The translations under genes were made by a program, and so were the position numbers. Of a stretch of DNA of 64,000 nt, positions 52,554 through 62,411 are shown piece by piece. How positions within the stretch are numbered: position 1 is the first letter of the stretch; every line of letters starts with the position of its first letter. The notes beneath the pieces were generated by a model. The model saw only the letters and a list, made by a program, of their open reading frames with translations, did no database searches and was not told the DNA's origin. Origin of the DNA: Chloroflexota bacterium (GTDB lineage Bacteria > Chloroflexota > Anaerolineae > Anaerolineales > Villigracilaceae); contig JACRBN010000019.1 in the NCBI GenBank assembly GCA_016213105.1, positions 62,001-126,000 on the forward strand, in the 5' to 3' direction.

Positions 52554-53726
52554 ATGCCGCCCCCAATCGACCGCCAAACTCTGAGCTTGCTGATTACGGA
52601 TCCCCCGCGCGTAGAGTGGGGATCCTTTTCTATTTCGGATTGGGGTGGGCTGCTGCCCTTGGCCCAACGGGAGGGAGTGGGACCGCTTCTTTATTGGAGG
52701 TTTTCCCGCTCCGGTCGGTTTCCCACCCTGCCGGAAGGAGTCCGCTTTGCCCTGCGTTCGCTGTATGCGGCTTCCTGGGCGGCGAATCACAGACTCTTCC
52801 AGGAACTTGGGAATATCCTGGTGCCCTTCCGTGAGTTAGGCATTCCTGCTGTGTTGCTCAAGGGCGGTTGCCACGCATTGACGATCTATCCTGATCCCGG
52901 CCTGCGTCCCATGAGCGACCTGGATCTGTTGGTCCCCAAATCCCGTTTTCTCGAAGCAGTCCAGATCGTGCGCTCCCTGGGGTATGTGGATTCTGAGCCG
53001 GAATCCCTGCCTGGCATCCGAGCCCTGCTGAATCATGAAGCCTGCCTGGTAAAGGATACGGTTGTGGTGGAAATCCATCACAGTCTGGTGGCCGACAAGT
53101 CCTTTACATACGCCGTCCCGGTCGACTGGTTTTGGGAACAGACCGAACCCCTGCCCAGCCTGGACACACGCCTGCACGGGTTGCACATGTTGACTCCGTC
53201 GGCCCAACTCCTGTATGCTGCTGCGCATGCCATGCTCCAGCATGGCGGGCATAAAGTTCCCCTGCGTTGGGAATATGACATTGACCAACTGGTGCGTAGT
53301 TATGCCGACCGCCTGGACTGGCGCCTGCTGCTTTCCCAGGCTCGCGCCTTTGCCTGGACCTCGGCCCTGCGGGAGGCTTTGTCCAGCGCGCGGGAAAATT
53401 TCGACACGCCCATCCCGCGCGATGTGGAAAACCAACTGGTGCAAACGACCGATCGCCATGCGCGCCTGGTGGCTGAGAAACAGATTCGCCCCGCCACCCA
53501 TATTCACAGGGAAAGACTGAAGTGGCTATCCTTGAATTGGATGGGCCGCCTGCAGATGTTGGCGGCGCTGGTTTTCCCCAGCCCGGCCTACATGCGCTGG
53601 CGCTATGGCTTTCAGGGGCATTGGCGTCTGCCTTGGTATTATCTGGTACGTTGGGGGGGGATTCTGAAGGATGGTTTGCGCATGGCCGCCTCGACTGTGT
53701 GGGGTGGGACGTCGCTCAAGCGATAA
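52554..53726 (+). CDS. Nucleotidyltransferase-like protein (NTP_transf_5 type), RiPP-associated
   Basis: 390 residues. A nucleotidyltransferase-fold segment reads AVLLKGGCHALTIYPDPGLRPMSDLDLLVPKS near 95-125, with the D-x-D metal site. The rest is helical. This uncharacterised family is often found beside PqqD-type proteins in lasso-peptide and other RiPP clusters; its reaction is unknown. Here it is the last G/C-rich gene before the A/T-rich PqqD/radical-SAM block, and it may belong functionally to that block rather than to the glycan genes. ATG at 52554. Confidence 0.7.
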   Translation: MPPPIDRQTLSLLITDPPRVEWGSFSISDWGGLLPLAQREGVGPLLYWRFSRSGRFPTLPEGVRFALRSLYAASWAANHRLFQELGNILVPFRELGIPAVLLKGGCHALTIYPDPGLRPMSDLDLLVPKSRFLEAVQIVRSLGYVDSEPESLPGIRALLNHEACLVKDTVVVEIHHSLVADKSFTYAVPVDWFWEQTEPLPSLDTRLHGLHMLTPSAQLLYAAAHAMLQHGGHKVPLRWEYDIDQLVRSYADRLDWRLLLSQARAFAWTSALREALSSARENFDTPIPRDVENQLVQTTDRHARLVAEKQIRPATHIHRERLKWLSLNWMGRLQMLAALVFPSPAYMRWRYGFQGHWRLPWYYLVRWGGILKDGLRMAASTVWGGTSLKR

Positions 53727-54021
53727 ACACCGAAGACAAATGTCAACAGCGATTGGTGACATTAAAATGACGAATTAGTATCTACTGGACTTAATTTGTC
53801 AGGTTAAAATAGAAAGTAATTCTTATAAAAATTTACTGCATTGCATCCTAGGTGGCAGTAGAACTCTTTGAAGATGACACATTGATGTTGAACTTGGTCG
53901 ATGAAGTGTTTTCCACTGAGAATCTGACCCCGTAGATATAGCAACTGATGTATTTGATTGAGCAACCATCTAATCGCAGATTGTCAAGCGATACTATACC
54001 GTAAAAAAGAAAGGTTGTGCT
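53727..54021 (+). promoter_or_regulatory. A/T-rich spacer at the start of the RiPP cassette
   Basis: About 295 bases with a marked drop in G/C. A weak promoter-like pair is TTGGTG (53753-53758) and TAGTAT (53776-53781), 17 bases apart. An in-frame GTG-to-TAG stretch of 27 codons (53852-53935) is too short to call. AGAAAGG at about 54008-54014 is the ribosome-binding site for the PqqD-like gene. No terminator is evident. Confidence 0.4.
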
Positions 54022-54306
54022 ATGTCCAGTGTTTCTGTCTCTACCCGTTATGTATGTAACCCGGATGTTGTTCTTCGTGAAGAAGATGATGATGGGGGGT
54101 TGCTTTTTAATCCAGATACGAATCAGATAAAGGTTCTAAATCATACTGGGCTTTTTATTTGGAAATTGTGCGATGGCAGCCACACATTTACCGATGTATT
54201 AACTGCATTGCGCGATTCTTATGATGGTCTGCCAGACGAAGAATTGGAAAGCCAGGTTGAAACCTTTATGGATCAGATGGTAGCTAACGGATTTGTGGGT
54301 CGTTAG
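54022..54306 (+). CDS. PqqD-family RiPP recognition protein
   Basis: 94 residues, stand-alone PqqD fold. A short N-terminal beta part (PDVVLREEDDDGGLLFNPDTN) is followed by VLNHTGLFIWKLCDGSHTFTDVL and a helix ending VETFMDQMVANGFV. This is the usual shape of the winged-helix RiPP precursor recognition element. It should bind the leader of the precursor and present it to the radical-SAM enzymes encoded next. By position it corresponds to ScmD of the SynChlorMet-type cassette, an assignment from memory of that family description. A hairpin with T-run lies 46 bases downstream, so part of the transcripts may end here. Confidence 0.88.
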   Translation: MSSVSVSTRYVCNPDVVLREEDDDGGLLFNPDTNQIKVLNHTGLFIWKLCDGSHTFTDVLTALRDSYDGLPDEELESQVETFMDQMVANGFVGR

Positions 54307-54352
54307 ATTTGTAGTGCAAATGGGTTTTGCGCCATATATGGTGTTCTCTTTT

Positions 54353-54376
54353 GTCTCTTTCTGGATGAGACTTTTA
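54353..54376 (+). terminator. Terminator-like hairpin between PqqD and the first radical-SAM gene
   Basis: GTCTC (54353-54357) pairs with GAGAC (54367-54371), followed by TTTTA. The same stem bases recur in the terminator at 57306. It probably lowers expression of the downstream enzymes relative to PqqD. Confidence 0.55.
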
Positions 54377-54465
54377 TGCCATATATTATGGAAGGGGAGT
54401 AGCCTGATTGCAAATAAGTTTATTGACTTTGAAAATTATCATTTTTGGATTGGAGTTGTTTAATA

Positions 54466-55557
54466 ATGTTTGCTCCCGGCCTTATAAGTAGTGTAAATAT
54501 AGCCATTACAGGACGTTGTAATTTGCGCTGTCGGTATTGCTTTTATGCCGATGAAATGGTGGCGTTTAGTGACTTGCCTACGGCCTCCTGGCTGGCCTTT
54601 TTTAAGGAATTGGCGCATCAAAAAGTAATGACAGTGACCCTTACAGGTGGCGAGGTTTTTACCCGGGCTGATTTATTTGAAATAATAGATGGCGTTGTTG
54701 AAAATCATATGCGGTATTCGCTATTAACGAATGCCACTCTTGTGGATGAGAAAACCATTCAGAAATTTGATGTTGGCAAACGCCGTCTTCGCCTTAATTC
54801 AATACAGGTTTCAGTTGATGGGTCATCTTCAGAAATTCATGATAGAAGCCGCCCACACAGTTTTACCCGGACAATGCGAGGTCTGCGTTTGCTCCAGCAG
54901 GCTGGTTTTCCTGTGACCGTACGGACAACCATAAATCGTCATAACTATCTTGATTTGGAAAATATAGCCAATCTGCTTTTGAACGAACTTCAGCTTTCAT
55001 CTTTTAGCACAAATGAGGCCATGCCTATCGGTGCTGGGTGTGACAATCAAGGTGATGTATCCCTTACTTCACCTGAGAAGGCTCAAACGATGGAAATATT
55101 GGCCGGGCTGCTTGACCGTTTTCCGGGGCGTATCACCTCCAGCGCAGGGCCTTTGACCAAGCTCAAGATGTATGCGGAAATGGAGCATGCGCGCAAGACA
55201 GGTGAACTTGCATCTTCTTGGCAGATGGGCTCTTTGTCGGCGTGCGGGTGTATTTTTTCCACTTTGGATGTTCTACATGATGGGAGAATCGTTCCCTGCC
55301 ACATGCTAAGCGATTTATCTATGGGCAATATCACGACCCATTCCATTGAGGAGATTTGGAAAACGCATCCATTCCTGACTGCGTTGCGAAGCCGCCGGGC
55401 GATTCCCATGAGCCAAGTATCTGGATGTGAGCATTGTAGTTGGACATCTTATTGTAATGGTAGTTGCCCAGGGTTGGCATATCAATTGACAGGCGATTTT
55501 AATCGCGCCAATCCTGAGGATTGTTATAATCGATTTTTATCGGAGACAAAGCAATGA
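54466..55557 (+). CDS. Radical-SAM/SPASM peptide-modifying enzyme 1 (ScmE-like position)
   Basis: 363 residues from the ATG at 54466, ten bases after GGAG; a TTG at 54445 is in frame. The radical-SAM cluster is C18-x3-C22-x2-C25 (CNLRCRYC), followed by TLTGGEVF and SVDGSSSEIHD. The C-terminal SPASM region has Cys in ACGCIF, IVPCHML and CEHCSWTSYCNGSCPG, enough to hold two extra 4Fe-4S clusters. Enzymes of this shape make C-C, thioether or epimer changes in RiPP precursors. Its target is probably the six-Cys peptide at 56708. The stop overlaps the next enzyme by four bases. Confidence 0.88.
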   Translation: MFAPGLISSVNIAITGRCNLRCRYCFYADEMVAFSDLPTASWLAFFKELAHQKVMTVTLTGGEVFTRADLFEIIDGVVENHMRYSLLTNATLVDEKTIQKFDVGKRRLRLNSIQVSVDGSSSEIHDRSRPHSFTRTMRGLRLLQQAGFPVTVRTTINRHNYLDLENIANLLLNELQLSSFSTNEAMPIGAGCDNQGDVSLTSPEKAQTMEILAGLLDRFPGRITSSAGPLTKLKMYAEMEHARKTGELASSWQMGSLSACGCIFSTLDVLHDGRIVPCHMLSDLSMGNITTHSIEEIWKTHPFLTALRSRRAIPMSQVSGCEHCSWTSYCNGSCPGLAYQLTGDFNRANPEDCYNRFLSETKQ

Positions 55558-56675
55558 ATGATCATTTTACTTCCGCCCAGCAACCCGTTGATTTGACTTT
55601 TGGTTTACCGGAAAACGTTCCGCAGTTGGCCTCTCTATACATATATGCTGCCGGTTCCTGTAATTTGGCCTGCCGCCATTGTTGGATTGTCCCTAAATTT
55701 CAGCCAAATGGAAATGGGGGGCCGTATATAAAGATCGAAACAGTGGAAAAAGTGATACGGGAAGGTAAAGGCCTGGGCTTGCATACTGTTAAGCTGACAG
55801 GCGGTGAGCCTTTAATGAATCCTCAGATTCGTGATATTATTTCCCTGATTGACGATGCCGGTTTGAGCATCATGATCGAGACGAATGGTATACTGGTTGA
55901 TGTCTTGATGGCCGAGTTTTTAAAATCCAAAAGCCGCGTTGACTTTATCTCCATTAGTCTTGACGGTTCAAATGCGGAAACGCACGATGGATTGCGCAGC
56001 GTTCCCGGCAGTTTTGATCAGGCTGTTCGAGGCATTAAAAATTTAGTTGAAGTGGGCTTTCGCCCTCAGGTAATCTGTACCCTGCATCGCGGCAACTCAC
56101 AGCAAATGGAAGAAGTAATAAATTTTGCCGCTGAGCTTGGTTGTAGCTCTGTGAAATTCAATAATCTTCAATCGTCGGGGCGCGGTGATAGCTTTATGCG
56201 TGAAGCGGGTTTGTCTATCGCTGAAATTGTTGATTTATACAAGCACCTTGAAAATGATATTATTCCGACCCGTCCGCTCCCTATTCACTTTGACATTCCC
56301 TTTGCTTTTCACCCGGTGCGCAGATTCCTGCAAGATTCGCTTGGAAAATGCGCCGTTCTAAATATTCTGGGCGTATTGTCGACAGGAGAGTTGGCGTTAT
56401 GCGGCATTGGAACGACCATCCCGGAACTTATTTATGGTCATGCCGATACAGACGATTTGCGCGACGTGTGGTGTAACGCCCCTGGTTTGATTAATTTGCG
56501 TGAAACGGTCCCTTTCAAGATGGACGGAGTTTGTGGGCGTTGCATTCATCGTGATTTTTGCCTGGGCACCTGTGTCGCAAATAATTATCATGTGGCTGGC
56601 AGGCTGGATGCCCCATTTAGTTTTTGCGATCAAGCTGAAAAATTAGGGATGTTTCCATCGTCCCGTATTAGATAA
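55554..56675 (+). CDS. Radical-SAM/SPASM peptide-modifying enzyme 2 (ScmF-like)
   Basis: 373 residues; overlaps the previous stop (ATGA). The cluster motif is C36-x3-C40-x2-C43 (CNLACRHCW), then KLTGGEPLMNP, SISLDGSNAETHD. The SPASM part has CGIGTT and CGRCIHRDFCLGTCVANN. The sequence around the first cluster, LYIYAAGSCNLACRHCWIVP, closely fits my memory of the ScmF family. Having two distinct SPASM enzymes suggests two kinds of modification on one peptide, or sequential action. Together with the PqqD protein it forms the core of the cassette. Confidence 0.88.
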   Translation: MNDHFTSAQQPVDLTFGLPENVPQLASLYIYAAGSCNLACRHCWIVPKFQPNGNGGPYIKIETVEKVIREGKGLGLHTVKLTGGEPLMNPQIRDIISLIDDAGLSIMIETNGILVDVLMAEFLKSKSRVDFISISLDGSNAETHDGLRSVPGSFDQAVRGIKNLVEVGFRPQVICTLHRGNSQQMEEVINFAAELGCSSVKFNNLQSSGRGDSFMREAGLSIAEIVDLYKHLENDIIPTRPLPIHFDIPFAFHPVRRFLQDSLGKCAVLNILGVLSTGELALCGIGTTIPELIYGHADTDDLRDVWCNAPGLINLRETVPFKMDGVCGRCIHRDFCLGTCVANNYHVAGRLDAPFSFCDQAEKLGMFPSSRIR

Positions 56676-56694
56676 ATTCATTATATTCATGTAT

Positions 56695-56700
56695 AAGGAG
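56695..56700 (+). promoter_or_regulatory. Ribosome-binding site of the precursor peptide
   Basis: AAGGAG, seven bases before the ATG at 56708 and one base before the ATG at 56702. Its strength and the spacing favour 56708 as the start and predict high translation of the peptide. Confidence 0.7.
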
Positions 56701-56707
56701 AATGACC

Positions 56708-56983
56708 ATGACTAGTAATATGGCTAAACGCGCGTATGTCCCACCCCAGGCAAAGGATTTGTCCTCGTTGGGCGTACAAGGTGATGACGTACATGGCGCT
56801 TGCAAGTCGGGCAGCGTCCCTCACACAAACTGCCTCAACGGTCCTGCTTACGTTGCCAGTTGTACAGGCGGAAGCGGCGTCGATTCTTCGGCCTGCGTCC
56901 CCGGCGGTTATCACTCTCTGCCTACTTGTACGACCGGATCGATTGCCGCGACGATTTGTGTGTCCGGCGCCACGCAAAATTAG
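56708..56983 (+). CDS. Putative RiPP precursor with six Cys-x-x-Gly repeats
   Basis: 91 residues. Residues 1-30 are leader-like, with Y10-x-x-P13 followed by KDLSSLGVQGDDVHG, similar to the YxxP-type motifs bound by PqqD-like proteins. The core (31-91) holds six Cys at 32, 42, 52, 63, 74 and 84, spaced 10-11 residues apart, and every Cys is followed by x-x-Gly. Between them lie Ser, Thr, Ala, Pro and single Asn, Tyr or His. Core and spacing suggest six repeated modification sites, for example thioethers as in sactipeptides or ranthipeptides such as SCIFF, but the chemistry is unknown. It follows the second radical-SAM gene by 32 bases. It has no strong hydrophobic segment. No homologue of known function is recognised. 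Confidence 0.8.
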   Translation: MTSNMAKRAYVPPQAKDLSSLGVQGDDVHGACKSGSVPHTNCLNGPAYVASCTGGSGVDSSACVPGGYHSLPTCTTGSIAATICVSGATQN

Positions 56984-57086
56984 GGCAATCACGCTATAGG
57001 CTGCGCTTCAAACTATTCAAACGTTATACACGTTTTATTGTTTAGTTGATGCGTATTCTATCAATTTGGTTGCTAGACAACAAAAG

Positions 57087-57143
57087 GCTCATGCGTAAAC
57101 TAGGCGGAAAAGAATATCTTTACGCCTTCTCTGCACATGAGCC
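57087..57143. repeat. 57-base imperfect palindrome
   Basis: The arms share GGCTCATG (57087-57094) with CATGAGCC (57136-57143), and inside them AGGCG (57103-57107) with CGCCT (57123-57127). Several wobble or matched pairs between give arms of about 28 bases. No T-run follows, so it is not an ordinary terminator. It may be a folded RNA, or a small palindromic (REP- or MITE-like) element; no target duplication was seen. Confidence 0.5.
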
Positions 57144-57305
57144 ATAAGAACATCTTTGCCTTTCAGGGAGATGCAATCACCTGGATGTTTTTTGAGTTAA
57201 AAACTTAAGGTGTTGATTGGGCATGCCTGTTGAATGAAGCCTGTTTCGGTATATAAAAATCGAATAAACCTTGGGTGCGATTTGGTAATGGAATTCTTGG
57301 CATTT

Positions 57306-57330
57306 AGTCTCCTGCTTGAGACTTTTTTTG
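57306..57330 (+). terminator. Rho-independent terminator of the precursor transcript
   Basis: Stem AGTCTC (57306-57311) with GAGACT (57318-57323), six-base loop, then a run of T to 57329. It separates the precursor from the HPr-kinase-like gene group. Confidence 0.85.
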
Positions 57331-57557
57331 TTACGCTGATGCCGTATTTATGCTTAATGATTATGGAATATGGCAGGTTCGCACGTCGAATTATAGACTA
57401 GTGGATATGAACCATCTATAAGTTTGTTGTTTTTGCCAATCTTATGGTTTTGAGGCTGGTACGGCTGGAGCGATTGACAACCAGCTATAGCAGGCGATTA
57501 CCAACAATCGTCATGGAAGAGTGCGTTTTTTTCACACTTGTGGTGTTGAGTATTACC

Positions 57558-58475
57558 ATGTTTTTGATAAAGCATAGCATTGCAGGCATTAGTTTTTCTA
57601 CAGAGTCTGATTTTTGCCTCCCCCACATGGCACAGCCAAACTTTGAGCCATTTTTGAGTGAGATGACTGGCGCGGATATATGTTGTCGATTTCAGGCTTT
57701 GGATCATGCCTCATCACCATTAGGTGAGTTGACCGAAAATCAACGTGAGCGTCTTCTTGCAACCATTGGCTTTCCTCGTAAATGGTTGGAGCGGAAAATT
57801 TTGGACCTGCCGCTTGTGAGGGAAAAAATCGAAGGGTGCTTGGCCTATCCTGATTTGGCGCATATTGGATTGCGGTGGGGGCGTGTAATTATTCGGAATT
57901 ATCATTCGAATGAACTTGATTATTTCTATGATCCCGAAAATGCCAGTGAATTTTCAAATGGCATGATGGCTGCCCGCTATCGAAACCTGTTGGCGCCCTT
58001 TTTGCCTAATTTCTCTGCATTTATGTCGCATGGCGGTGGAATCATTCGGAATGGCATGGCAATGGTGTTTCTTGCCTCTGACGAGGGTGGCAAATCATCC
58101 GTAGTCAAACTCGCTGTCGGGTGCCCTGTTTTGAGTGACGATCAGGTAATTTTGCGTAAACAGGACAATAATGAGATCGTTGCTCATGGCACTCCTTTTG
58201 CCCCCCTGTCCAGCGGCATGGTACAAGCGAAATTGGGAGGCATATTCCTATTGGAAAAATCGGATAATTTTAGCCTTACCCCCATCCCGATCAGAGATGC
58301 TGTTCAGTTCATTTGGAAAGAACATATGCATTTATGGTTTCTAATGCCCAAGGCATTGAGGGTAAAGGCTTTTAATATCATTGTGGATGCCTGCGCGCAG
58401 GCAAAATCATTTCGACTTGGGTTTTCAAAAGATTATATTGATTGGGATGTTGTCGACGCGGCGACAAAAAAATAA
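57558..58475 (+). CDS. HPr-kinase-like protein of the RiPP cassette (ScmC-like position)
   Basis: 305 residues from the ATG at 57558, giving the normal family N-terminus (HSIAGISFSTESDF); the frame is open from 57444. A central segment reads ALLxHGG-type: SHGGGIIRNGMAMVFLASDEGGKSSVVKL, shown here only in part as ASDEGGKSS, a Walker A of the A-x4-G-K-S form. DDQVILRK follows, as in HPr kinases. Such proteins occur in lasso-peptide and SPASM-type RiPP clusters; in some lasso systems they phosphorylate the peptide. The phosphate acceptor here is unknown. It may phosphorylate Ser or Thr in the core. It begins a second transcription unit after a terminator. Confidence 0.7.
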   Translation: MFLIKHSIAGISFSTESDFCLPHMAQPNFEPFLSEMTGADICCRFQALDHASSPLGELTENQRERLLATIGFPRKWLERKILDLPLVREKIEGCLAYPDLAHIGLRWGRVIIRNYHSNELDYFYDPENASEFSNGMMAARYRNLLAPFLPNFSAFMSHGGGIIRNGMAMVFLASDEGGKSSVVKLAVGCPVLSDDQVILRKQDNNEIVAHGTPFAPLSSGMVQAKLGGIFLLEKSDNFSLTPIPIRDAVQFIWKEHMHLWFLMPKALRVKAFNIIVDACAQAKSFRLGFSKDYIDWDVVDAATKK

Positions 58476-58490
58476 CTTGTCTCTCAAGAA

Positions 58491-59312
58491 ATGCAGATGT
58501 TTAAGTGGCTTTCACAATTTCGCACAATCTTTGTCACCGGTCCACAACGATCTGGAACGAGGATCTGCGCCCAAATGATAGCTCATGACACTGGATATGA
58601 GTATGTCGATGAAAATGATTTTGGAATGGATAGCTTGTATCATTTGTCTTCGATTCTGGAAAATAAGGTTGACCTTATTATTCATTGCCCTGTGTTATGC
58701 CGTCACATACACATGCTCACTGATGAAAATTCCGCAGTGGTTTTTATGCGGCGAAATGTGGAGGACATAATAGCCTCGCAGAAGCGCATTGGTTGGCGCT
58801 GGGAAAAACTTGAGCTGTCGCGTTATGATTTAACAACTGGCGTTATTGCTGAGGTTAAGTATAGATTTTGGGATGAGCACCAAAGATCTAAAATTCGACA
58901 TGCCTTTGAAGTCCAATACGACGATTTGCGTTTGCATCCGTTGTGGCTTGATATGGGTGTGCGTGGAGATTTTGAACCTACACAAACTACAATTTTCCCT
59001 TTCCGGTTGGCCGTTGATGGTTCAGGTTTGACATATCCCATTGCGGTGGCGGGTATAACCCAGGTTGACGATATTCCAGGCGAAAGTGCCTTGTTATGCA
59101 AGGTTAAGGAAAATATTCTTATGCTGAACCCGACAGGTATTTTTATCTGGAGTTTGTGCAATGGAAAAAATACCTACCAGGATATATTGCAGGAGTTCGT
59201 CAGGGAATATAAAGATGTTCCTGTTTCCCAGGTTCAACTGGATTTGGATAAGTTCTTAAGTGAATTGGTATCCCGTGGATTTATTCGATTCGGAAACTCG
59301 AAGATCGAATGA
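58491..59312 (+). CDS. Sulfotransferase-like P-loop domain fused to a PqqD domain
   Basis: 273 residues. The N-terminal domain (about 1-165) has FVTGPQRSGTRICAQMIA, matching the P-x-x-S-G-T 5'-phosphosulfate loop. VVFMRRNVEDIIAS lies where sulfotransferases bind the 3'-phosphate of PAPS. After a linker, residues about 195-265 form a PqqD fold: LLCKVKENILMLNPTGIFIWSLCNGKNTYQDIL and a helix ending LDKFLSELVSRGFI, clearly related to the stand-alone PqqD protein at 54022. A recognition domain fused to a transferase would bring it straight to the leader. The acidic-loop chemistry (sulfation or phosphorylation) is uncertain. The stop overlaps the next start by four bases. Confidence 0.75.
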   Translation: MQMFKWLSQFRTIFVTGPQRSGTRICAQMIAHDTGYEYVDENDFGMDSLYHLSSILENKVDLIIHCPVLCRHIHMLTDENSAVVFMRRNVEDIIASQKRIGWRWEKLELSRYDLTTGVIAEVKYRFWDEHQRSKIRHAFEVQYDDLRLHPLWLDMGVRGDFEPTQTTIFPFRLAVDGSGLTYPIAVAGITQVDDIPGESALLCKVKENILMLNPTGIFIWSLCNGKNTYQDILQEFVREYKDVPVSQVQLDLDKFLSELVSRGFIRFGNSKIE

Positions 59313-59962
59313 CGAGTCAGACCATGGACCAAAATTTTATATCTGAGATCGTTCTGGATATTCACGATGGGAATGGGGTGAGATTTTATTGTGGGAACAG
59401 CATGGACGGCGTTTTTCTTTTGGGGGATCGCTTGTTGGTTGAGCCTGTTTCCCACTCTGAAATTCATCCGGGCGACATAATCATTTTTCGTAAAACATAT
59501 AGTAATGATGCGCAGGGTGAGGTGGTCCATCGGGTTGTGTCGAAAAAGCCGTTGGCTTGTTTTACACGCGGAGATAATAACCTCTTTTTTGATTTCCCCC
59601 CTGTTTTTTGGGAGCAGGTGGTTGGGAAGGTACATTCATTTGAGCGCGATGGGCGGAGAACAAGAGTGGTTGGCGGACTGTCCGGCTTGTATGCATCCCA
59701 AGCCCGGTGGTTGATTTTACTGGTCAAGCGTTTGGGTAAGACGGCGTTTCGACGCTTCTATCATATTTTGCGGCAAAGTGGATTCGTGCCTAAGGTTTGG
59801 CGTCCCACCATAAAAAAAATTTCCCTTGAAACCAGTGAAGGTTTTCTGGTTAAATATCTTTATAATCAACGCACCGTAGCAATGTGGAATCGCACCACCC
59901 GGGAATTTGTGTGCGATAAACCCTTCGATTTGGTTATACTTCCTCCGGAGGATGATTTTTAA
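59309..59962 (+). CDS. S26-type signal peptidase-like protein (Sec11-like dyad)
   Basis: 217 residues. RFYCGNSMDGVFLLGDRLLVEP gives a catalytic Ser in the N-S-M box; HPGDIIIF and VVHRVVSKK place a His where bacterial enzymes have Lys, as in Sec11/archaeal signal peptidases; FTRGDNN is the usual box E. The family's proline after S-M-x is missing (S-M-D-G). The last 90 residues are an extra domain without clear homology, including a stretch with an I-L-L-V-K-R segment. No N-terminal membrane helix is seen, unlike normal signal peptidases, so it may cleave the precursor leader in the cytoplasm. Alternatively it matures something exported. Confidence 0.65.
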   Translation: MTSQTMDQNFISEIVLDIHDGNGVRFYCGNSMDGVFLLGDRLLVEPVSHSEIHPGDIIIFRKTYSNDAQGEVVHRVVSKKPLACFTRGDNNLFFDFPPVFWEQVVGKVHSFERDGRRTRVVGGLSGLYASQARWLILLVKRLGKTAFRRFYHILRQSGFVPKVWRPTIKKISLETSEGFLVKYLYNQRTVAMWNRTTREFVCDKPFDLVILPPEDDF

Positions 59963-60012
59963 TGTTTGTTTTCGATGATGCGACCGGTTTGAAGGCGACT
60001 GAGTAGAATAAT

Positions 60013-60507
60013 ATGGATAAAACAACACAGAACCATTCGCTTGATTCACAACTTTGCCTATCTTGCGGTGTTTGCTGTCGGGGTATATTCTTTTATCATG
60101 ACAATGATCCTTTTGCGTTTGGACGTTCTCCTGAAGTTCAGAATCCGCTTTTTCCAATGGCTTGCCGTCTATTGCATGAACAGGAAAATAGCTGTGTCAT
60201 TCATGACAATCCTGAGCGTCCATCTCTTTGTCAAACGTTTCAATGTCAATTGCTAAAGAGTCTTCTTCGAAATGAAATTTCGCTTGAACAGGCAAAGCAT
60301 AAAGTCAAGGTATTTAGAGAGTTGTTGATTTCGGTTCTCAATAGACTCCCACATGAGACTACTCCCAGACCTGTTTATCTTATGCTTGAAAAAAATTTTT
60401 CTGTTTTGCGCCAGGAACTGGAAAATGGAAATCGGGAAAACTTAAATTTATTTATGGACATAATCTGGTTGCGTTTGCTAATAGCCCGATATATCATTTC
60501 TCCGTAA
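60013..60507 (+). CDS. YkgJ-family Cys-cluster protein
   Basis: 164 residues. The N-terminal Cys pattern C-x2-C-x2-C-C (CLSCGVCC) is followed by Cys in FPMACRLL, NSCVIH and LCQTFQC, the YkgJ arrangement for an Fe-S or zinc centre. The C-terminal half is helical and not conserved. Function of the family is unknown; some members occur next to radical-SAM or RiPP genes. It is small enough to be a redox partner for the two radical-SAM enzymes, but this is inference. It follows the peptidase by about 50 bases. Confidence 0.75.
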   Translation: MDKTTQNHSLDSQLCLSCGVCCRGIFFYHDNDPFAFGRSPEVQNPLFPMACRLLHEQENSCVIHDNPERPSLCQTFQCQLLKSLLRNEISLEQAKHKVKVFRELLISVLNRLPHETTPRPVYLMLEKNFSVLRQELENGNRENLNLFMDIIWLRLLIARYIISP

Positions 60508-60599
60508 CTGGGCATGGTTTCAACTACTCCTCTTTCCCATGATCTTGATTCTACGTATCACTTGATGTGATTATTCCCAATTAAAAGACTTGCCATAAA

Positions 60600-62411
60600 A
60601 TGCCCTCCTGGTTCAATTACCTGCGCCAAGGTTTATCTCGTACAAACTCCAAGGATAGAATAGTTGGAGAAAAAAGCAATATCAACACGCCTGACAACCT
60701 TGAGTATCTGCGTCCTTATTTTCTTCGCCACTGGCGCAAGGGCGTTGTTGGGGCGGGGCTGATCCTTTTCACCAGCCTGCTGGCTTTTCCCCAGCCGCTG
60801 ATCAACCGTTTTTTGATCGACGATGTGATGCTGGCGCGGCGCATGGATTTGCTGCCGCTGGCGATCCTGTTGATCGGCGGGATCAAGGTCTTGGCGATGG
60901 GCGCGGGGGTCTTGCAGCAGTATTTCTTTACGCGCTTCGAGCAGGCGGTCATGCGCGATATGCAGCATACCCTGCTCGACCACGCCCTGAGCCTGCCCAA
61001 GTCCTTCTTCGACGACAAGGAGGTCGGCTACCTGATTTCGCGCCTGTCTTCGGACGTGTGGGGCCTGCGCTGGTTCTTTTCCAGCAATATTATCCACATT
61101 ATCAGCAGCCTGTTTCGCTTCCTCGGCGGGGTGGTCTTCCTGCTCTACCTGGAATGGCGGCTGGGACTGGTAACCCTGGTGGTTCTGCCCCTGCTGGTGT
61201 GGGTCACACGGTATTTTTCGGAGCGCATGCGCGCCCTCAGCCATCACGGCATGGAGCGTTACGCCAGCGTGACTCAGCGATTTCAGGAAACCCTGGCCTC
61301 GGTGCCGCTGATCAAGGCCTTCGCAGCCGAGGGGCGCGAGAGCGGGCGGGTGATGTCGGCGGTGGCCGACAGCCAGCAAATCGAGATGGAGCAGGTCACG
61401 GTGGGTTCGCTGGCCAGCCTGGTCCTGGGTACCGTTCCCAGCCTGGCCAACGGGGTGGCGCTTGTGGCGGGGGCGTTCTGGGTCATCCGCGGCGAGTGGA
61501 CGCTGGGTTCCCTGTTGGCCTTCCAGTCCTACCTGGGCTACGTTTACGGCCCGGCTATGTCCCTGGCCAGCGCCAACCTGCAATTCCAGAACGCCCTAAC
61601 CGCCCTGGAACGGGTCTCGGCGGTGCTGGAGGTCGTTCCGGAGGAGAATACGGGTACGGGCAGGCAGGTGGAGCGGCTCGAGGGGGAGGTGCGTTTCGAG
61701 GCGGTCTCGTTTGCCTATCCCGGGCAGGAGGCGGTGCTCGATGACCTGTCCTTCACGGTGCGGGCAGGGGAGCACGTGGCGGTCGTCGGGCCGAGCGGCG
61801 TGGGCAAGACCACCCTGGTCAGCCTGATTCTGCGCTTTTACCGCCCGACCGGCGGGGACATTTTCTTCGACAGCCTGCCGGCCGGGCAGTATGAGTTGAA
61901 ATCCCTGCGTCAGCGCATCGGCTACGTCTCGCAGGCCACGACCCTGCTGGCTGGGACGCTGCGCGACAACCTGCGCTATGGCAACCTGGATGCGCCCCAG
62001 GCAGAGATCGAACGGGCGGCGCGGGTGGCGGGCATCCACGATTTTATCGTCAGCTTACCCAACGGATACGACGCCCCGGTAGGGGAGCGCGGGGTCAACC
62101 TTTCCGAGGGACAGAAGCAGCGCCTGTCGATTGCCCGCGCCCTGGTCAAGGATCCCGACATCCTGATCCTGGACGAACCCACCTCGGCGCTGGACAGCCT
62201 GACCGAGAATGCCTTCGTCGAGGCGCTGGAGGGCATGACGAAGGGGCGCACAGTCTTCCTGATCGCCCATCGCCTGTCCACGGCGAAACATGCCGACCGG
62301 ATTTTGGTGCTCAACGAGAAACGGCTGGTCGCCAGCGGTTCGCATCGTGAGTTGATGCAGGAGAGCGGGTATTACCGCAATTTGGTGGAGAACCAGCAGG
62401 TGTTGGTTTAG
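60600..62411 (+). CDS. ABC exporter (fused permease and ATPase)
   Basis: 603 residues. A polar N-terminus of about 45 residues is followed by a six-helix transmembrane domain (about 48-330). The ATPase domain contains VAVVGPSGVGKTTLV (Walker A, about 394-408), LSEGQKQRLSIARAL (signature) and ILILDEPTSALD (Walker B). No C39 peptidase domain is present, so leader removal must be done by another protein. It is the closest exporter to the RiPP genes and the natural candidate to secrete the product, though its G/C-rich codon use matches the chromosome rather than the A/T-rich cassette. Only the first 60 residues are A/T-rich. Confidence 0.88.
   Translation: MPSWFNYLRQGLSRTNSKDRIVGEKSNINTPDNLEYLRPYFLRHWRKGVVGAGLILFTSLLAFPQPLINRFLIDDVMLARRMDLLPLAILLIGGIKVLAMGAGVLQQYFFTRFEQAVMRDMQHTLLDHALSLPKSFFDDKEVGYLISRLSSDVWGLRWFFSSNIIHIISSLFRFLGGVVFLLYLEWRLGLVTLVVLPLLVWVTRYFSERMRALSHHGMERYASVTQRFQETLASVPLIKAFAAEGRESGRVMSAVADSQQIEMEQVTVGSLASLVLGTVPSLANGVALVAGAFWVIRGEWTLGSLLAFQSYLGYVYGPAMSLASANLQFQNALTALERVSAVLEVVPEENTGTGRQVERLEGEVRFEAVSFAYPGQEAVLDDLSFTVRAGEHVAVVGPSGVGKTTLVSLILRFYRPTGGDIFFDSLPAGQYELKSLRQRIGYVSQATTLLAGTLRDNLRYGNLDAPQAEIERAARVAGIHDFIVSLPNGYDAPVGERGVNLSEGQKQRLSIARALVKDPDILILDEPTSALDSLTENAFVEALEGMTKGRTVFLIAHRLSTAKHADRILVLNEKRLVASGSHRELMQESGYYRNLVENQQVLV

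What the first reader, a model, noticed from the sequence alone, without database searches (positions are those of the whole stretch)
56708..56983. Six evenly spaced Cys-x-x-Gly units in a candidate RiPP precursor
The 91-residue peptide carries Cys at 32, 42, 52, 63, 74 and 84, all followed by x-x-Gly and spaced 10-11 residues apart. It sits 32 bases after two SPASM radical-SAM genes and a PqqD gene and has the strongest ribosome-binding site of the cassette. Precursors of the SynChlorMet-type cassette were, to my knowledge, unassigned. A repeat of this regularity is unlike known sactipeptides in its spacing and could define a new precursor class.
Basis: partly seen in the sequence, partly recalled or inferred. 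Interest (0 to 1): 0.92.

Follow-up and report, generated by a model that had tools for sequence, protein, structure and literature searches.

The report
Repeated-cysteine precursor of paired radical enzymes
This short gene encodes a peptide with six evenly spaced Cys-x-x-Gly units that two neighbouring radical enzymes very probably convert into a chain of small rings; similar peptides accompany the same enzyme pair in many bacterial phyla, but what the product is or does is not known.

Summary
In detail: ATG 56708 opens a 91-aa peptide with six CxxG units (Cys 32, 42, 52, 63, 74, 84), 32 bases after a PqqD-ScmE-ScmF operon, with the best Shine-Dalgarno match of the cassette. It is not chance. 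Of 59 ScmE loci, 45 have a complete ScmF with at least 400 bp behind it; 39 of these 45 encode a peptide with a YxxP leader and at least three C-x(2,3)-G units, against 0 of 20 control loci. Five of the six misses carry one elsewhere in the genome. In 70 distinct precursors, 373 of 378 core Cys are in CxxG or CxxxG. Two claims need correction: NCBIfam already holds a narrow precursor model for this cassette (TIGR04252, ScmA, 49 positions), which misses this peptide; and CxxG has a precedent, a Cys31-Gly34 thioether in streptosactin. Most likely ScmD presents the leader and ScmE/ScmF close one small thioether ring per unit, probably to the Gly alpha-carbon. The chemistry is inferred, not shown. 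Judged a new variant of a known, uncharacterised kind.

The parts
56708..56983 (+). precursor peptide gene (91 aa): leader with YVPPQAKDLSSLG, core with six CxxG units
   Evidence: relatives in 3 other phyla with all 6 Cys and all 6 unit Gly invariant (A4)
56695..56700 (+). Shine-Dalgarno AAGGAG, 7 nt before ATG 56708
54022..54306 (+). ScmD-like PqqD protein (RRE), predicted leader binder
   Evidence: TIGR04248 75 bits (cut-off 100), PF05402 56 bits, over its cut-off
54445..55557 (+). ScmE-like radical SAM/SPASM enzyme (start TTG 54445 or ATG 54466)
   Evidence: TIGR04250 377 bits over the full length (cut-off 400); next best family 124 bits; AF2 model pLDDT 91 matches SuiB, PqqE, anSME, CteB, SkfB
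55554..56675 (+). ScmF-like radical SAM enzyme with 7-Cys SPASM-type C-terminus
   Evidence: TIGR04251 386 bits (cut-off 400); Cys pattern
57444..58475 (+). PEPCK/HPr-kinase-fold P-loop protein, possible tailoring kinase
   Evidence: no Pfam/NCBIfam hit at E <= 0.01; AF2 pLDDT 85; PEPCK by Foldseek, E 3e-7, TM only 0.43; invariant GGK in the P-loop; matched in 17 of 59 loci
58491..59312 (+). P-loop sulfotransferase-like protein with C-terminal PqqD domain (second possible RRE)
   Evidence: PF05402 55.8 bits, over its cut-off; PF13469 25.3 bits, below its cut-off of 27
59309..59962 (+). S26-type signal-peptidase-like protein, candidate leader protease
   Evidence: TIGR02228 53.3 bits, over its cut-off; matched in 28 of 59 loci
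60600..62411 (+). ABC transporter (permease-ATPase), candidate exporter
   Evidence: matched in 26 of 59 loci, though ABC ATPases match promiscuously: also in 6 of 20 control loci

Best explanation
The 91-aa peptide is the substrate of the adjacent ScmD-ScmE-ScmF machinery and belongs to a broad precursor family with 3-9 repeated units, typically C-x(2,3)-G-[S/N/T]-x-[A/P]. The PqqD protein ScmD binds the YxxP leader and presents the core. The paired radical SAM/SPASM enzymes ScmE and ScmF act, together or in turn, once per unit, abstracting a hydrogen and joining the Cys sulfur to a nearby residue. The favoured acceptor is the alpha-carbon of the Gly at +3 (or +4). The product would be a string of small unnested thioether rings, six in the window peptide. 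A signal-peptidase-like protein and an ABC transporter would then remove the leader and export it. Shown by sequence: the conserved repeat, the leader motif, the genomic linkage, and purifying selection on Cys and Gly. Inferred: leader binding by ScmD, thioether formation, Gly as acceptor, leader removal and export. Probabilities: precursor role 0.95; one thioether per unit 0.65; Gly alpha-carbon as main acceptor 0.45.
For: 39 of 45 assessable ScmE loci encode such a peptide against 0 of 20 control loci, and five of the six misses have one elsewhere in the genome. In 400 genomes of the phylum ScmE was found in 3; the precursor profile hits those 3 plus one weak match whose locus holds no ORF with three CxxG and YxxP. 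373 of 378 core Cys lie in CxxG or CxxxG units; in 48 precursors CxxG occurs 193 times against 42.8 +- 5.7 in shuffles. In the window peptide and three relatives from other phyla all 12 unit Cys and Gly are invariant at 46-48% identity to the window peptide. In five Verrucomicrobia/Kiritimatiellae precursors Cys and Gly codons vary (5 of 6 and 6 of 6) with no amino-acid change, while 17 of 48 other core residues vary. Y and P of YxxP are invariant in the 37 rows of A3, though YxxP was part of the selection. Both enzymes keep CX3CX2C (42 of 42, 44 of 44) and 7-Cys SPASM patterns (40 of 42, 43 of 44). Precedents: streptosactin Cys25-Ser28 and Cys31-Gly34 S-Calpha links, made by one SPASM enzyme (passages of PMC8172795); thuricin CD needs both of its radical SAM enzymes together (passages of PMC12406949); a PqqD-like B1 protein binds a lasso leader with nanomolar affinity (passages of PMC5067487).
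Against: No chemistry is shown. The window ScmE is about as close to WgkB and to haem enzymes (AhbD, NirJ1) as to the sactipeptide maturase StsB, and over 33 ScmE members those three reach better E-values than StsB; the StsB match covers only the radical SAM core. So homology does not name the reaction. Nearest folds include SuiB, anSME and PqqE, besides CteB and SkfB. 69 of 378 Cys are in CxxxG, so a strict 4-residue ring is not universal. S/N/T after Gly (209 of 373) and A/P at G+3 (256 of 373) could mark other acceptors or a second modification. The leader-protease and exporter candidates were matched in only 28 and 26 of 59 loci, many of them short contigs. Two genomes with ScmE (L025, L035) gave no precursor.
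Confidence: 0.6

Rival explanations
1. Ranthipeptide-like: each Cys is joined to the beta- or gamma-carbon of a side chain near the unit (the frequent S/N/T after Gly or A/P three residues after Gly), and Gly only forms the turn.
For: S/N/T follows Gly in 209 of 373 units and A/P stands at G+3 in 256 of 373. Freyrasin has six Cys-Asp S-Cbeta links. ScmE also matches the PapB model, at 86 bits.
Against: No single side-chain type is invariant, whereas Gly at +3/+4 is nearly so. The window units have S, P, S, G, S, A after Gly. PapB is a weaker match than StsB, WgkB and AhbD.
Confidence: 0.2
2. The two enzymes do different things: one makes the Cys cross-link, the other a second modification (epimerisation, C-C link or oxidation) at another position of the unit.
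For: Two different enzymes are paired, each with its own NCBIfam model (TIGR04250, TIGR04251). The unit has a second frequent part, G-[SNT]-x-[AP]. Folds close to ScmE belong to enzymes of several kinds.
Against: Thuricin CD shows that two paired enzymes can be needed for the same thioether chemistry. No sequence feature assigns a second reaction.
Confidence: 0.35
3. The peptide is an unmodified Cys-rich protein (metal-binding or disulfide-linked) that merely sits beside the enzymes.
For: Regular Cys repeats also occur in metal-binding and structural proteins (established knowledge).
Against: Single, not paired, Cys at about 10-residue steps; a leader motif; occurrence with ScmE; only isolated weak Pfam matches among 37 precursors (best E 0.02).
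Confidence: 0.04
4. The ORF and its pattern are chance.
For: Spurious CxxG ORFs do occur: two of the 49 ORFs that met the test looked spurious.
Against: Shuffle tests, conservation across phyla and codon evidence.
Confidence: 0.01

Closest known systems
SynChlorMet cassette with putative precursor ScmA (NCBIfam TIGR04248, TIGR04250, TIGR04251, TIGR04252)
   Same: PqqD protein plus two radical SAM enzymes of the ScmE and ScmF type and a small peptide; the two hits of the ScmA model are also CxxG peptides, one beside an ScmF relative and one beside an ScmE relative.
   Different: All three window proteins score below the equivalog cut-offs, and the peptide is not matched by the 49-position ScmA model. 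The window peptide is longer, with six units and a DLSxLG-type leader.
Streptosactin (sactipeptide with unnested rings)
   Same: Cys-x-x-Gly and Cys-x-x-Ser S-Calpha links in two unnested rings, made by a SPASM enzyme.
   Different: Two rings, one enzyme, a 14-residue product; here six units at 10-11-residue spacing and two enzymes. No chemistry shown here.
Freyrasin and other ranthipeptides
   Same: Six Cys-acceptor links made by one radical SAM enzyme.
   Different: The acceptor is the Asp beta-carbon there; the unit here has Gly at the near-invariant place.
Thuricin CD
   Same: Two radical SAM enzymes needed together for thioethers.
   Different: Nested rings and two precursors; no PqqD or CxxG repeat noted in the passages read.
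Lasso peptides with PqqD-like B1 protein
   Same: PqqD-type leader binder; one precursor weakly matches a lasso leader model, E 0.074.
   Different: No lasso cyclase or B2 protease family appears in the lists for the ten window proteins scanned.

Membership tests
SynChlorMet cassette (NCBIfam) | ScmD, ScmE and ScmF proteins over the curated equivalog cut-offs | tested here: not met
   75 of 100, 377 of 400 and 386 of 400 bits; ScmE and ScmF are full-length and far above the next family, but all are under the cut-off. Filed as SynChlorMet-type, not as an equivalog member.
SynChlorMet cassette (NCBIfam) | gene set: PqqD + two ScmE/ScmF-type radical SAM enzymes + small peptide (set as I understand it from the NCBIfam names) | tested here: met
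   same set in related loci
ScmA precursor (TIGR04252) | match to the model over 35 bits | tested here: not met
   window peptide no match at E <= 1; 7 of 37 precursors match weakly; 0 of 24 and 0 of 395 genomes over the cut-off
RiPP with PqqD-type recognition | PqqD/RRE protein and a conserved leader motif in the precursor | tested here: met
   PF05402 over its cut-off; Y and P of YxxP invariant in 37 of 37, with YxxP part of the selection. Binding itself not tested.
Sactipeptide | S-to-Calpha thioether made by a radical SAM enzyme | not testable with these tools
   needs mass spectrometry and NMR
Ranthipeptide | S to non-alpha carbon thioether made by a radical SAM enzyme | not testable with these tools
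   needs mass spectrometry and NMR
Ranthipeptide | enzyme of the PapB type (NF047865 over its cut-off) | tested here: not met
   ScmE 86 bits against 340
Lasso peptide | B2 protease and C cyclase in the cluster | tested here: not met
   not in the family lists of the ten window proteins scanned, 52554-62411; long lists show the best 25 only

The most novel reading that the evidence does not exclude
ScmE and ScmF work as a pair along the peptide and install one Cys-to-Gly S-Calpha ring of four or five residues in every unit. This would give a poly-sactionine chain with 3 to 9 unnested small rings, a product class spread over many phyla and not yet characterised, in one genome made from about a dozen scattered precursors.
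Probability: 0.35. Interest if true: 0.82.

Novelty: new variant of a known kind. Interest (0 to 1): 0.62.

Why it matters
A cassette type that NCBIfam names, but on which the open-access papers searched hold nothing by name, gets a precursor family defined well enough to clone and test. It has a clear repeating unit and leader, a paired-enzyme requirement that can be tested, and natural variants with 3 to 9 units. If the rings are Cys-Gly S-Calpha links, it would be a large extension of streptosactin-type unnested sactipeptides and a source of repeat-programmable cross-linking enzymes. It would also give annotation pipelines a motif, C-x(2,3)-G repeats behind YxxP, that the present Pfam and NCBIfam models mostly miss.

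Tried and rejected
Scan of viral contigs with the peptide: nothing. PHROGs: nothing. Pfam on 37 precursors: only isolated weak matches. Naming the chemistry from enzyme homology was rejected: StsB is second best for the window ScmE, but over 33 ScmE members WgkB, AhbD and NirJ1 reach better best E-values. That StsB is the streptosactin enzyme is my reading of the name, from no call. Foldseek of the ScmE model ranks SuiB, PqqE, anSME, CteB and SkfB together. The idea that the Verrucomicrobia/Kiritimatiellae loci lack such a precursor was rejected, since all five genomes carry one elsewhere. The genomes of L025 and L035 gave none and stay unexplained; L025 lies on a short contig and the L035 ScmF is cut by the contig end.

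Limits and dropped rows. The scan found 139 relatives and kept 80, so rarer types may be missing. Two ORFs (L012 13730, L031 8292) were dropped by eye as spurious, and two duplicate entries before the count. Control loci L069-L088 are distant radical SAM loci, mostly of Firmicutes, so the control differs in lineage. The ORF test asked for at least three C-x(2,3)-G and YxxP, and the 22 extra precursors came from profile searches and a similar filter, so the share of Cys in units is partly selected. The three genomes positive in both contributed rows to A3, so the informative part there is the absence in the others; both searches scored only the best few candidates of each genome (4 and 13). In one search, 8 of 10 genomes matched, but G407 and G408 were already represented in A3. 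The 59 loci come from fewer genomes: L012/L045, L043/L053 and L047/L052 share a genome, by their record names. An earlier count gave ten units for one L149 precursor; searches count nine.

Full report
Observation. The window holds, at 56708-56983 on the + strand, a 91-residue ORF with six Cys at 32, 42, 52, 63, 74 and 84, each in CxxG. It lies 32 bases after the ScmF stop, and AAGGAG stands 7 nt before its ATG; the other genes of the cassette match AAGGAGG over 4 bases or fewer. In shuffles of its own core all six Cys fell in CxxG in 2 of 200,000 cases, and the spacing was as even in 10 of 100,000.

The cassette. 54022-54306 is a PqqD protein (PF05402 over its cut-off; TIGR04248 75 bits). 54445-55557 and 55554-56675 are the radical SAM enzymes, best matched by TIGR04250 (ScmE, 377 bits) and TIGR04251 (ScmF, 386 bits), over their full length but under the curated cut-offs of 400. 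Behind the peptide come a PEPCK/HPr-kinase-fold P-loop protein, a P-loop sulfotransferase-like protein with a second PqqD domain, an S26-type signal-peptidase-like protein, a CxxCxxCC protein and an ABC transporter. An inverted repeat and a terminator-like site lie between the peptide and the kinase-like gene; terminator-like sites in the region scanned were no more frequent than in shuffles (4 against 3.9 expected).

Conservation. One scan of the collection of 84,980 species genomes with a four-sequence ScmE alignment found 139 relatives and kept the best 80, giving 79 loci. I took the 59 with 43% identity or more (L010-L068) as ScmE loci and the 20 at 24-26% (L069-L088) as controls. 45 of the 59 have a complete ScmF with at least 400 bp behind it. 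39 of these 45 hold an ORF of 40-150 aa with at least three C-x(2,3)-G and a YxxP leader; none of the 20 controls does; of the 14 other loci (ScmF cut, absent or too near the end), one does. In 24 of the 39 it starts within 300 bp of the end of the ScmF match on the same strand. By record titles the positive loci include Chloroflexi, Acidobacteria, Aminicenantes, Eisenbacteria, Verrucomicrobia, Fermentibacter, KSB1, WOR-3, CSSED10-310, delta-proteobacterial groups and one Methanothrix bin. The misses are L025 (496 bp only) and five Verrucomicrobia/Kiritimatiellae loci. All five of those genomes carry a precursor elsewhere (E 8e-14 to 2e-12). In three of them it is on a contig of the same length as that of ScmE, about 13-16 kb away, as I compute from the coordinates. 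The genomes of L025 and L035 gave none.

Specificity. In 400 genomes of the window's phylum ScmE was found in 3 at E <= 1e-60. The precursor profile A3, at E <= 0.001, hit the same 3 and one weak genome (6.3e-4) whose fetched locus holds no ORF meeting the CxxG/YxxP test. The three were part of A3, so the weight lies on the 396 negatives. Each search scored only the best few candidates per genome.

The repeat. Across 70 distinct precursors (48 from loci and window, 22 from whole-genome hits) 304 of 378 core Cys are in CxxG, 69 in CxxxG and 5 in neither; the five all have another Cys within two residues. Cys-Cys steps are 9-14 residues in 298 of 308; peptides carry 3 to 9 core Cys. Gly is followed by S, N or T in 209 of 373 units, and A or P stands three residues after it in 256 of 373. 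In the first 48 peptides CxxG occurs 193 times against 42.8 +- 5.7 in shuffles. The window peptide and relatives in an Acidobacteria, an Eisenbacteria and an Aminicenantes genome (46-48% identity to it) have all six Cys and all six unit Gly invariant. In five Verrucomicrobia/Kiritimatiellae peptides the Cys and Gly codons vary (5 of 6, 6 of 6) without any amino-acid change, while 17 of 48 other core positions change residue. So the units are under selection as protein. One genome (G011/G408) carries about a dozen scattered precursors: 12 matches, 14 at a looser threshold.

Enzymes. CX3CX2C is kept in 42 of 42 full-length ScmE and 44 of 44 ScmF, and a 7-Cys SPASM pattern in 40 of 42 and 43 of 44. 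The ScmE model (pLDDT 91) resembles SuiB, PqqE, anSME, CteB and SkfB. Family scores do not name a reaction: for the window StsB, WgkB, AhbD and NirJ1 are nearly level (124, 121, 120 and 119 bits), and over 33 members the latter three do better than StsB. A tree of 34 ScmE puts the window in a starred group of 12 rows that mixes Chloroflexota, Acidobacteriota, Eisenbacteria, Fermentibacter and Aminicenantes, which fits, but does not prove, horizontal spread.

Mechanism. The leader motif and the PqqD protein point to leader-guided processing; nanomolar binding of a lasso leader by a PqqD-like B1 protein is reported in PMC5067487 (passages). The repeat with one Cys and one near-invariant Gly per unit, with two SPASM enzymes, points to one Cys cross-link per unit. 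Streptosactin offers the closest precedent: S-Calpha links Cys25-Ser28 and Cys31-Gly34, unnested (PMC8172795, passages; one passage there prints Cys15). Freyrasin shows that one enzyme can make six links (same paper, and PMC11002830, passages). Thuricin CD shows that two such enzymes can be needed together (PMC12406949, passages). I therefore favour a chain of small Cys-Gly rings. That part is inferred.

Comparison with the known. NCBIfam already contains SCM_precur_ScmA (TIGR04252, 49 positions, cut-off 35 bits). It matches 7 of 37 of the A3 peptides weakly and not the window peptide, and no genome (24) or 49 (395) over its cut-off. Its two hits are a 63-aa peptide with three CxxG units directly after an ScmF relative (48% identity to the window ScmF), and a locus with two peptides of 7 and 9 units after an ScmE relative (38% over 212 residues). 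So the window peptide is best seen as a long, divergent relative of ScmA, and the claim that precursors were unassigned is wrong in this respect. I recall, from no call, that the cassette name comes from Syntrophobacter, Chlorobium and Methanocella genomes. The open-access library holds no paper with SynChlorMet, with ScmA and radical SAM, with any of the four TIGR numbers, with CxxG, radical SAM and precursor, or with CX2G, sactipeptide and radical SAM. The lists were seen as listings; from them I opened passages of six papers. Subscription papers were not searched.

Verdict. A real, widespread and well-defined precursor family of a catalogued cassette type for which I found no reported chemistry; a new variant of a known kind, ready for experimental test.

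Noticed in passing
window 57444-58475: Protein without Pfam or NCBIfam match whose AF2 model resembles PEPCK (HPr-kinase/PEPCK P-loop fold), with a conserved GGK P-loop; relatives were matched in 17 of 59 ScmE loci and it may be a peptide-tailoring kinase.
   Followed up: partly
window 58491-59312: Sulfotransferase-like P-loop protein fused to a second PqqD domain.
   Followed up: no
window 57086-57143 and 57306-57323: 25-nt inverted repeat and a terminator-like hairpin with a T run between the precursor and the kinase-like gene.
   Followed up: no
genome G011 = G408 (L012, L094, L097, L100-L108, L130): About a dozen scattered precursors in one Chloroflexi MAG, three in tandem on one contig, some with seven units: one enzyme set may serve many peptides.
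   Followed up: partly
L149 1258-1632 and 1440-2117: Two successive precursor ORFs (longest-ORF starts overlap) with 7 and 9 CxxG units after an ScmE relative; nine is the largest number seen.
   Followed up: partly
L089-L092, L095: Verrucomicrobia/Kiritimatiellae precursors carry a variable, Cys-free C-terminal tail of 34-72 residues, rich in Ser, Pro and Gly, behind a strongly conserved six-unit core.
   Followed up: no
L047, L052 (Methanothrix MAG): The cassette, with 3-unit precursors, also occurs on contigs binned as an archaeon.
   Followed up: no
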